Shown in pieces: positions 44,283-46,901 of a DNA stretch of 46,901 nucleotides. The stretch spans positions 1 to 46,901 of the forward strand of contig DAIDIO010000008.1 in NCBI GenBank assembly GCA_027459325.1, written 5' to 3'. The notes under the pieces were generated by a model. That model searched no databases. It was not told the DNA's origin and saw only the letters and a list, made by a program, of their open reading frames with translations. The stretch is from Candidatus Saccharimonadota bacterium (GTDB lineage: Bacteria; Patescibacteriota; Saccharimonadia; Saccharimonadales; UBA4665). A program made the position numbers and the translations under genes. Numbering within the stretch: position 1 is the stretch's first letter; each line of letters opens with the position of its first letter.

Positions 44283-46901
44283 CTAATTTAAGTTTACGTA
44301 GTCCCATGTGTAAGTATGAGTAGCTGTATCAGGAATTACAAAGTTGACCGTGAAACCAGTGGTTGATGGAGTAACTGTAGGTACAACCGAAGCTCCATTA
44401 GTACTACCGGTTGCTGATATGACAGTATTTGGAGCTGTAGCATAGCTGGAACTAAAGCTGATGCTACACTGTGCTCCACTTGCCCAGGTGGCAGTACCGG
44501 TAACTAAAGTAATCTGCCCATCGGTATCGTCTCCAGTTACATTACAGGTTGCACCAGTGCCAGCATTAGCATTGACAACAGCCGATGTACTACCAGTAGT
44601 ATTAGCCGTAACTATATGTCCATTAACAGTCAGAGCCCCTGTAATAGTGGCGTTCTGAACTATTAGATTGCCCTGGTAATCAATAGAGGCGAGATTACTG
44701 CCGCTGCTATTTTGTAGACTGAATGCATAGCCCGACGACTGGCCGGCAACATCCTGAACAACAATACCACTATTGGTAGCGCCGTTCGTGCTGACCGCGA
44801 TTTGATATGTACCGGCAGCCGTTGTTAATGCGCCAATGCTGAGTAAGTTAGCCGGGCTGGCCGTGCCAATTCCTACCCTGCCATCAGTAGTATCAACATC
44901 GAATATTCCTGTTCCGGCACTATTAGCGACTTGGAAGGCTGTAGTAGCATTAGATGCAGGCTGTATAAGAACCGATGAACCAAATGTGCTGTTACCACCG
45001 ACATGAAGTGAGTCGCCGACATTTAAGTTACCTGTGTCTCCAGATGCAGAAGACGTTCCAACTGCAACATCATCCATAGTAAATGTACCGACGTGTGTAC
45101 CACCGGTATATCCGTCACCTATAGCAAGATTTGGTGGAATAGTACCTGTATCGATGCTAGTCTCATTTAAGACCTGAGTACCGTCCATGTATATTGTTAT
45201 AGATCCAGTGGTAGTACTAAACGTAATGTCTACTTCTAATTCATGCCATGAGTTTAATGGCAGGACTGTTGTGCTTACATAACTAGTGTTATTAGCTAGA
45301 TCGTAAATTGATATATAGCCAGTTGTCTGTTGTCTGTATACGGACGTGAAGTTAGGTGATACAGTACCAACTGATTCAAGGTTAAGATCAGAAGCACCTT
45401 GGGAAGCTACATTAATGTAAGATTGAATGACTGTAGTTGTGCCCATTGTTATACCAGCTACTACGTGAGAGTATCCAGCACCGGTTTCTACAAACTGAGC
45501 TGCATAATGACCGGTGTGAACTGGAGATGATACAACTGCCGCAGTTGCTGAGCCTGACTGTGTTACCCCTCCATTCCAAGAGTTAAAGTTACCACTTTCA
45601 AAACCGTCACTAAAGAGCCGGGTTAATCCTGGTCCTATGCTAACATCGCCATTAAATAGGCTCTGATTGTTAGCAGTATCTACTGTGAGTAGACTTGTTC
45701 CGGATGTGTTCTGCACCTGAAATGCAGTAGTAGAGTTGACTGCTGACTGTAAAGTGGTTGTGCCTAGGACGTCTAGGTTAGCGCTTGGCGTAGTTGTACC
45801 TACACCTATTCTGGCGGTTTGGTCTGAAGTCTGGGTAGAGCCTGATGTACCAGCGGCACCAGTATCAGTGAATGGACTTGTTGTAGCTGTCTGGTAGACA
45901 TTCTCTGCTCCACTAGTTGTTCCTCTATAGATATGGTAGGAAGTAGCTCCTACTACTGGAGTCCAGCTAATAGTAGCGTTGTTGGTATTGGTAGTTGCTG
46001 TATTGGTAGTTGGTACTGCTGCTCCTAAGCTAGTGTCTGCTGTGGTATCGGTGTAGGTAGTAGTGGTGTTATCTGCAATGGTAGTAACTAGTTTTTCTGT
46101 ACCAGTTGCACCGCCTACTGCAGTACGGTAGATCTTTCGTCCAGTTGTACCGGTTGGGCCTAGTGGTAAGGCTGAAAGGGCTACGGCTTGGTTACCACTT
46201 GTTGTAGTAACACTGAATTCTGTACCACCATTAGTCTCACCATTAGCTGTTACGTAGGTAATCTTGTATAAGTAAGTACCTATACCAAGAGTAGTGCCAG
46301 TGGTTGCGGCAGCTGTGGCTACACCTGGGGCAGTAATTGGAGTAAATGATGATCCGGCAATAGATACTTCATTAGAAGCTAGTGTCTCACCTGCTGCATT
46401 AAGAGCACTGACTTTATAGTAGTAAGTAGTACCAGTTGCACCGGACAGACTACCGCCTTGGTCAGAACCAGCTGCTACAGCTAGTCCAGTTGGAATGCCT
46501 AGGCCTAGTTCTAATAGATTACCTTGTCCTATTGTTATGTTAGAGCTAGTAGTGTTAGCTGTCAGTAAGCTTCCACCTGCAGCATTCTGCACTTGGAAGG
46601 CAGTAGTAGAGTTAGTAGCGTTCTGGAAGGTAGCAGAACCATTGGTGCCATTAATACTTAAGGCAGTTGATGGGGTTGTATTGTTAGTAGTGCCGCTGGT
46701 TGTACTTGGGGCATATATATTGAAGTTAATATTACCGCCAGCACCTGTGCCTGTTCCCTCGCCTCCAGCTATAGCTAAGTTAGTACCAGCGACATTAGTA
46801 CCAGTTGCATTACCGCCTTGGAGAGTACCGGCAGAGGTAAACTCTGACATGACTGTGCCTGAGCTGTTTTGGAACTGTAGGAGATCAGCGGTTTGGGAGG
46901 C
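44283..46901 (-). CDS. Giant repetitive surface protein, C-terminal part (5' end beyond the window)
   Basis: The frame stays open to the right edge: codons before the Met at 46850 read TADLLQFQNSSGTV, the same repeat as inside, so that Met is internal. At least 872 residues are seen. There are three full copies of an N-(S/A)-TTAFQV-x-N repeat, Fn3-like segments (YYYKVSALNAAGETLASNEV, YLYKITYVTANGETNGG, TSYHIYRGT), and a concanavalin-like domain (GFESGNFNSWNG ... IYMDGTQVLNET). A C-terminal beta domain has two Cys. The protein is Thr/Ser/Gly-rich and almost free of Lys. Probably exported and cell-attached; the function, perhaps host contact, is inference. Confidence 0.85.
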   Translation of the reverse strand, partial: ASQTADLLQFQNSSGTVMSEFTSAGTLQGGNATGTNVAGTNLAIAGGEGTGTGAGGNINFNIYAPSTTSGTTNNTTPSTALSINGTNGSATFQNATNSTTAFQVQNAAGGSLLTANTTSSNITIGQGNLLELGLGIPTGLAVAAGSDQGGSLSGATGTTYYYKVSALNAAGETLASNEVSIAGSSFTPITAPGVATAAATTGTTLGIGTYLYKITYVTANGETNGGTEFSVTTTSGNQAVALSALPLGPTGTTGRKIYRTAVGGATGTEKLVTTIADNTTTTYTDTTADTSLGAAVPTTNTATTNTNNATISWTPVVGATSYHIYRGTTSGAENVYQTATTSPFTDTGAAGTSGSTQTSDQTARIGVGTTTPSANLDVLGTTTLQSAVNSTTAFQVQNTSGTSLLTVDTANNQSLFNGDVSIGPGLTRLFSDGFESGNFNSWNGGVTQSGSATAAVVSSPVHTGHYAAQFVETGAGYSHVVAGITMGTTTVIQSYINVASQGASDLNLESVGTVSPNFTSVYRQQTTGYISIYDLANNTSYVSTTVLPLNSWHELEVDITFSTTTGSITIYMDGTQVLNETSIDTGTIPPNLAIGDGYTGGTHVGTFTMDDVAVGTSSASGDTGNLNVGDSLHVGGNSTFGSSVLIQPASNATTAFQVANSAGTGIFDVDTTDGRVGIGTASPANLLSIGALTTAAGTYQIAVSTNGATNSGIVVQDVAGQSSGYAFSLQNSSGSNLASIDYQGNLIVQNATITGALTVNGHIVTANTTGSTSAVVNANAGTGATCNVTGDDTDGQITLVTGTATWASGAQCSISFSSSYATAPNTVISATGSTNGASVVPTVTPSTTGFTVNFVIPDTATHTYTWDYVNLN
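44893..46620 (-). repeat. Dispersed repeat units in the surface protein gene
   Basis: Copies lie at 46561-46620, 45685-45741 and 44893-44955, each coding for TTAFQV followed by a short G-x-(S/G) turn and a (T/V)-(N/D)-T strand. The first two share long identical DNA stretches around GCAGTAGTAGAGTT; the third is more diverged. A partial copy lies at the right edge. Confidence 0.7.

What the first reader, a model, noticed from the sequence alone, without database searches (positions are those of the whole stretch)
44283..46901. Giant modular surface protein cut by the window edge
The open frame runs through the right edge with repeats, Fn3-like and concanavalin-like modules. Composition (Thr, Ser and Gly-rich, almost no Lys) differs sharply from neighbours. 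Such proteins in episymbiotic bacteria are candidates for host attachment, and near-identical DNA in repeat copies suggests recombination or recent duplication.
Basis: partly seen in the sequence, partly recalled or inferred. Interest (0 to 1): 0.5.

Follow-up and report, generated by a model that had tools for sequence, protein, structure and literature searches.

The report
Tipped surface stalk tied to ATPase
The window ends inside the outer half of a very long, probably membrane-anchored surface fibre whose tip resembles a sugar-binding lectin, and in related bacteria the same tip and its membrane partner sit beside a second, unusual rotary-type ATPase, which hints at a powered attachment device.

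Summary
The observation mostly holds. A real 872-aa minus-strand frame fills 44283-46901, Thr/Gly-rich with 0.5% Lys; its 5' end is lost at the contig end. "Near-identical DNA repeats" is wrong for the window (best family 64-72%) but true of the gene's probable other half: a 924-aa frame on own contig C2 with one transmembrane helix and a T/S/G/A/N-rich stalk, which stops inside a 43-bp repeat. Single frames in five relatives match both halves.

The last ~120 aa are a tip domain (A1), at the C-terminus in 31 of 31 frames checked, present in 84 of 118 relatives, also capping phage fibre proteins, probably H-type-lectin-like (low-confidence model).

Upstream of the C2 half lies UP270: signal peptide, outer domain, and a hairpin resembling F-type subunit c without its carboxylate. 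UP270 immediately precedes the b-like gene of a second, F1-like ATPase cluster at 80 of 111 places; an A1 protein follows within 9 kb at 60 of 111. In our genome UP270 and stalk lie away from that cluster.

Best reading: a lectin-tipped anchored adhesin (known kind) tied to an F1-like motor (inferred, new). Nothing here is tested at the bench.

The parts
44283..46901 (-). C-terminal 872 aa of a long surface stalk protein; 5' end missing at the contig end
44289..44651 (-). A1 tip domain, about 120 aa, at the extreme C-terminus
   Evidence: profile match E 1.6e-39, the only one in the own genome; the window sequence is one of the 11 rows of the profile
45046..45618 (-). concanavalin/LamG-like module (limits approximate, by eye)
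   Evidence: weak Pfam Polysacc_lyase hit inside it, E 6.4e-5, below cut-off; structure prediction failed, pLDDT 34
45807..46454 (-). stretch with Fn3-like look (limits approximate, by eye)
   Evidence: no Pfam Fn3 match at E <= 1; distant matches of residues 155-382 in other bacteria
46547..46613 (-). fibre-type repeat NSTTAFQVQN, copy 1 of 3
   Evidence: repeat family D1, 72% to the reference copy
45671..45737 (-). fibre-type repeat, copy 2 of 3 (reference copy)
44885..44951 (-). fibre-type repeat, copy 3 of 3
   Evidence: 64% to the reference copy

Best explanation
The ORF is the outer half of one very long, single-pass, membrane-anchored surface stalk. Its N-terminal half (cytoplasmic tail, one transmembrane helix, fibre-type repeats) is the 924-aa frame that runs off own contig C2. 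The stalk carries a C-terminal, H-type-lectin-like tip (A1) away from the cell to bind a glycan or other ligand on a partner cell. It works with the gene just upstream on C2, UP270: a membrane protein with an outer domain and a C-terminal hairpin that looks like an F-type subunit c without its ion-binding carboxylate. In most relatives UP270 and a small A1 protein flank a second, F1-like ATPase cluster. I propose that UP270 sits in the membrane where subunit c would, RNP loop towards the F1 gamma/epsilon, and passes ATP-driven movement to A1 stalks. Shown by computation: frame, composition, tip domain, UP270-A1 and UP270-F1 gene linkage, missing carboxylate. Inferred: the join, lectin fold and binding, ring formation, force transmission.
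For: Tip domain at the end (0-8 aa) of 31 of 31 frames, in 84 of 118 relatives, and at the end of phage fibre frames (E 1.8e-21 to 9.1e-11 in six viral contigs; best reversed-sequence control 0.55). Second look at Foldseek's matches: H-type lectins and discoidins at Z 5.7-6.1; Pfam H_lectin in 2 of 11 domains, best E 5.1e-4. C2 half: helix 49-76. Both halves match single frames in G016, G042, G109, G092 and G104 (tip of G042). Same downstream genes rpsU-yqeY-adk-map in G035. UP270 upstream of TM-anchored A1 stalks in G016, G042, G109, G112, G004. 80 of 111 b-like places have UP270 immediately upstream, 60 of 111 have A1 within 9 kb, 58 both; UP270 and A1 co-occur 81/9/3/24 over 117 handles. 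UP270 hairpin against subunit c: score above all 200 + 300 shuffles, RNP in 19 of 19, carboxylate in 0 of 19.
Against: The join is not covered by sequence, and eight small contigs (C12-C19) read N. The A1 model has pLDDT 62, Foldseek alone finds nothing at E <= 0.001, and Z near 6 can be chance by the tool's own note. In the own genome the second F1 cluster has neither UP270 nor A1 beside it. 31 of 111 b-like places lack UP270 and 14 genomes have b-like but no UP270 at all. HHalign probability for UP270 against subunit c is only 52.7%, and 7.4% in a first run. Co-occurrence counts are not corrected for ancestry or completeness.
Confidence: 0.55

Rival explanations
1. A passive giant adhesin. 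UP270 is only an envelope partner or assembly helper of A1 proteins; the F1-like cluster is a neighbour through shared expression, with no force transfer.
For: In the own genome and G042 the UP270-stalk pair lies away from the F1-like cluster, and 14 genomes keep the cluster without UP270. Giant surface proteins are common in CPR bacteria (PMC8080830, passages).
Against: The tight UP270-b gap (median 59 nt) at 80 of 111 places and the subunit-c-like hairpin with its loop kept in 19 of 19 are unexplained by mere neighbourhood.
Confidence: 0.3
2. The second F1 cluster is a true ion pump or ATP synthase that borrows membrane subunits, and the stalk is linked to it only by regulation.
For: Catalytic motifs are intact in the own copy; alpha, beta, gamma and epsilon match ATP synthase families.
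Against: No carboxylate at the c position in 19 of 19 UP270; no subunit a seen among the genes of 14 clusters (by gene labels and eye); Pfam subunit c is found once per genome in 14 of 15, and not in G102, which has only the second alpha/beta pair; own alpha and beta score below the cut-offs of the canonical NCBIfam models.
Confidence: 0.1
3. The C2 and C26 pieces are two different genes; the window gene has another N-terminus, for example the signal-peptide type seen in G064, G011, G029.
For: A second N-terminal architecture exists among relatives' A1 giants. The assembly is incomplete (91.5%) and C12-C19 are unreadable.
Against: C2-right is the only stalk-like 3'-less frame among the readable contig ends; C26 holds the only A1 domain and C2 the only UP270; five relatives have single frames matching both.
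Confidence: 0.2
4. A prophage or tailocin fibre left in the chromosome.
For: The A1 domain and fibre-type repeats also occur in phage fibre proteins.
Against: The flanking genes examined are housekeeping genes; P0001 has no match in 50,697 phage records; the probable N-terminus is a membrane anchor.
Confidence: 0.03

Closest known systems
Mycoplasma Type 2 F1-like ATPase and the M. mobile gliding machinery (PMC8406192 passages, PMC3369863 abstract and section 27)
   Same: A second F1-like alpha/beta set beside the ordinary ATPase, linked to very long surface proteins whose tip binds sugars
   Different: Here the cluster has b-like and delta-like genes and UP270 with a subunit-c-like hairpin; the Mycoplasma membrane proteins (12 and 3 helices) have no recognised F0 likeness. 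Function here is untested
Mycoplasma Type 3 F1-like X0 ATPase with MIB-MIP (PMC12994834 abstract)
   Same: An F1-like ATPase that co-occurs with, and is needed by, surface proteins
   Different: The surface proteins there bind and cleave antibodies; here a stalk with a lectin-like tip
Giant membrane proteins of CPR bacteria such as Vampirococcus (PMC8080830 passages)
   Same: Very long membrane proteins thought to serve host recognition
   Different: No A1 tip, UP270 or F1-like partner is described in the passages seen
H-type lectins (Helix agglutinins, discoidins)
   Same: Probable all-beta fold, Z about 6; weak Pfam H_lectin hits in some A1 domains
   Different: Sequence similarity below Pfam's cut-off; binding untested
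Phage tail fibres
   Same: Fibre-type repeats and the same C-terminal domain
   Different: Membrane-anchored, chromosomal, away from phage genes

Membership tests
H-type lectin (Pfam H_lectin) | sequence match above the family cut-off | tested here: not met
   2 of 11 A1 domains match, best E 5.1e-4; the window domain itself has no match at E <= 0.1; 18.5 bits against a cut-off of 24 in the G024 protein
H-type lectin (Pfam H_lectin) | H-type lectin beta fold | tested here: inconclusive
   Z 5.7-6.1 to lectins and discoidins on a pLDDT 62 model
H-type lectin (Pfam H_lectin) | binding of GalNAc or another sugar | not testable with these tools
   needs protein
Membrane-anchored surface adhesin | N-terminal signal or anchor | tested here: met
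   helix 49-76 in the C2 half, if the join holds; 13 of 17 5'-complete A1 frames in relatives have one near the start
Membrane-anchored surface adhesin | adhesion to a host or surface | not testable with these tools
   needs an assay
Phage tail fibre | encoded among phage structural genes | tested here: not met
   housekeeping neighbours
F-type subunit c (for UP270) | hairpin with polar RNP/RQP loop | tested here: met
   RNP in 19 of 19, two C-terminal helices in 19 of 19
F-type subunit c (for UP270) | ion-binding Asp/Glu in the second helix | tested here: not met
   0 of 19 at that position
F-type subunit c (for UP270) | Pfam ATP-synt_C match | tested here: not met
   no Pfam match for own UP270 at E <= 0.01 or for the G024 one at E <= 1
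Mycoplasma Type 2/3 F1-like ATPase (for the second F1) | match above the NCBIfam cut-offs of those models | tested here: not met
   own alpha 319 bits against a cut-off of 600 (MMOB1660) and 251 against 520 (MSC_0619); own beta 354 against 570 (MSC_0618) and 327 against 850 (MMOB1670)

The most novel reading that the evidence does not exclude
These small bacteria carry an ATP-driven attachment or crawling device: a second F1-like ATPase turns a ring of UP270, a subunit-c derivative that no longer carries ions but displays a domain outside the cell, and this moves lectin-tipped stalks of which the window protein is a giant form. It would be a second, separately built case of the logic of the Mycoplasma mobile gliding motor, with a clearer path from an ATP synthase.
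Probability: 0.22. Interest if true: 0.93.

Novelty: new variant of a known kind. Interest (0 to 1): 0.7.

Why it matters
How Patescibacteria hold and move on their hosts is open, and many of their essential genes have no characterised homologue (PMC11665869, passages); [quoted passage not shown] A conserved set of a second F1-like ATPase, an ion-less c-like protein and a lectin-tipped stalk would join the two questions and make both directly testable: purify the complex, look for the ring, remove the genes in a cultured relative. UP270 and A1 also give handles for naming many proteins that match no known family.

Tried and rejected
Full gene from the contig: impossible, the contig ends at the window edge. 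Second copy of the protein in the genome: none (by DNA only two 30-nt matches besides itself). Other 5'-less T/S-rich frames (C25 left 792 aa, C3 left 160 aa) as the continuation of C2: read, no fibre repeats by eye, and A1 is found only on C26. C24-right 3'-less frame (248 aa) as another start for C26: not stalk-like by eye. Structure of the concanavalin-like module: failed, pLDDT 34; its homologues in viral contigs: none. PDB sequence matches: none for A1 or P0001, two rows at E 0.4 and 0.9 for UP270. Foldseek on the A1 model: nothing at E <= 0.001. The genome-contig scan gave six distant matches to inner modules, none covering the tip. Blastp between the two own halves gives long 22-26% alignments, discarded as composition. 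hhalign of UP270 against c gave probability 7.4 in a first run and 52.7 in the run used for the shuffles; both are told, as the options differed. Literature: no paper listed or read links Saccharibacteria/Patescibacteria to an F1-like ATPase with surface proteins, in the searches (open-licence PMC only; listings, not whole texts).

Full report
What was checked. The frame is real: minus strand, 46901 to 44283, 872 aa, stop at the low end, 5' end missing. The window is an entire contig, C26 of a genome of 822,790 bases in 27 contigs, 91.5% complete, so the 'window edge' is an assembly break. The composition claim is right for Thr, Gly and Lys, less so for Ser. The claim of near-identical repeats is wrong for this piece.

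The missing half. I looked at both ends of the contigs for frames that run off an end (C12-C19 read N). Contig C2, right end, holds a frame of 924 aa from a GTG start with a hydrophobic helix at 49-76, then a body of 63% T/S/G/A/N and 0.6% Lys. Its last 43 bases repeat an inner stretch at 97.7%, which would explain the break. Five relatives have single frames that match this stalk and also window pieces: G016 (677 aa), G042 (2876 aa), G109 (3559 aa), G092 (2504 aa), G104 (2032 aa) (the tip of G042 is). G035:C13 has an A1 giant followed by rpsU, yqeY, adk and map, as here. I take the join as likely, about 0.8, not shown. Such genes often break assemblies: 13 of the 31 A1 frames begin at a contig edge, one of these being the start of a single-contig genome.

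The tip. The last 120 aa were aligned with ten relatives (A1). The profile finds one copy in the own genome, 84 of 118 relatives (own genome included) and 27 of 286 genomes of a phylum sample, which is 13 of 25 in the class and 14 of 261 outside it (counted from its rows). In 31 of 31 frames the domain ends 0-8 aa from the stop. Six distinct viral contigs carry it at the end of fibre-like frames, E 1.8e-21 to 9.1e-11, and a second frame in L158 matches at 3.4e-8 (L151 and L153, and L152 and L155, are the same contigs). The model of the window domain, made with six viral rows, is all-beta at pLDDT 62. Foldseek alone gives nothing significant. VIA-align ranks VP37 of a shrimp virus first (Z 9.3) and then mostly H-type lectins and discoidins at Z 5.7-6.1, within the range that can be chance. 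With the sub-threshold Pfam H_lectin hits I call the fold probably H-type-lectin-like.

The partner. On C2 a 270-aa protein, UP270, lies about 195 nt upstream of the stalk. It has a signal-type helix, an outer domain and a C-terminal two-helix hairpin with the loop GRNP. Pfam has no match; the outer domain has one weak PHROG hit, a head scaffolding family, E 2.3e-4. UP270-like genes are in 90 of 116 relatives. They lie just upstream of TM-anchored A1 stalks in G016, G042, G109, G112 and G004.

The surprise. In G024 the UP270 gene starts a cluster: UP270, b-like, delta-like, alpha, gamma, beta, epsilon, then a convergent 327-aa A1 protein (b-like and delta-like are named by place and length, not by a family match). 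Fifteen genomes were searched for alpha/beta and for subunit c: 13 have two alpha/beta pairs, G072 only the canonical one, G102 only the second; Pfam subunit c is found once per genome in 14 and not in G102. Fourteen second clusters were read: UP270 in 11, A1 adjacent in 9 and about 4 kb on in a tenth. With the tables for all relatives: 111 b-like places, 80 with UP270 immediately upstream (median gap 59 nt), 60 with A1 within 9 kb downstream, 59 of these convergent, 58 with both; UP270 and A1 are present/absent 81/9/3/24 over 117 handles, Fisher 1.5e-14. One search examined 118 genomes and searches examined 116 each, so a handle or two in that table was not searched in every call, and ancestry is not corrected for. 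The b-like gene is in 103 of 116 relatives, and in 16 of 25 class members but 0 of 261 others in the phylum sample (counted from its rows); the weakest of these hits (E near 1e-3) may be other b subunits.

UP270 as a subunit-c derivative. The hairpin profile (19 sequences) aligned to 14 canonical c sequences scores 27.2, probability 52.7%, above all of 200 full and 300 hydropathy-keeping column shuffles; a first run with other options gave probability 7.4. RNP is present in 19 of 19, and no acid lies at the position of the c carboxylate in 19 of 19; five have an acid elsewhere after the loop (the c position is read from the sequences). A signal peptide, an outer domain and a hairpin put the loop in the cytoplasm, as in subunit c (inference, recalled biology). 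A c-like ring without carboxylates could not serve an ordinary F0, so a mechanical use is the natural idea.

How it may work. The stalk stands in the membrane and carries the tip outwards; the tip binds a sugar or another ligand on a neighbour. UP270 sits beside it and, where the second F1 is present, passes on ATP-driven turning or shape change. In our genome the second F1 lies on C23 with intact Walker motifs but without UP270 and A1 next to it; as in G042, the pair lies elsewhere. For this genome the motor link is therefore by analogy with relatives, and 14 genomes with b-like but no UP270 show that the cluster can exist alone.

Known things. Mycoplasmas have F1-like ATPases beside the ordinary one (PMC3369863: outline, abstract and section 27), one in the M. 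mobile gliding machine with a long leg whose foot binds sialylated sugars (PMC8406192: passages), another needed for MIB-MIP (PMC12994834: abstract and one passage). CPR bacteria are known for giant membrane proteins (PMC8080830: passages). A study of Saccharimonadia bins reports F-type ATPases and type IV pili, without the present cluster in the passages seen (PMC12592800). An ATP synthase survey reports 60.6% of 33 CPR with an F-type synthase (PMC10656485: passages).

Organism. No tool named it.

Verdict. As part of the UP270, A1 and second-F1 set: unusual, well linked by gene order in relatives, mechanism open.

Noticed in passing
L193, L194, L195, L200, L201, L202, L203, L204, L098: On the far side of the A1 gene at the end of the second-F1 cluster lies, in most of these, a secreted protein of about 245-260 aa with a shared look (SSNYGVNEVFFGSGGE); further secreted proteins of similar style follow.
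   Followed up: no
G015:C42, G084:C46, G028:C2, G034:C12, G090:C26, G070:C16, G115:C7, G011:C7: A more divergent b-like gene (20-26% identity) also directly preceded by UP270: possibly a third type of F1-like cluster in the same order.
   Followed up: no
G040:C4:8747-9085, G110:C36:42911-43267, G115:C2:122725-123087: The outer domain of UP270 (query residues about 30-145) is found inside giant frames just before their A1 tip.
   Followed up: no
L151:6981-8333: A viral contig with a tail protein gene just upstream has a 451-aa fibre-like frame ending in the A1 domain, so phages and these bacteria share the tip.
   Followed up: partly
own genome: C24 right end, C25 left end, C3 left end: Other T/S-rich frames also run off contig ends (248, 792 and 160 aa), so at least one more surface gene is probably broken by this assembly.
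   Followed up: no
G102:C2: This genome has the second F1 alpha/beta pair but no canonical subunit c and no second pair; it may have lost its ordinary ATP synthase and kept the F1-like one.
   Followed up: no
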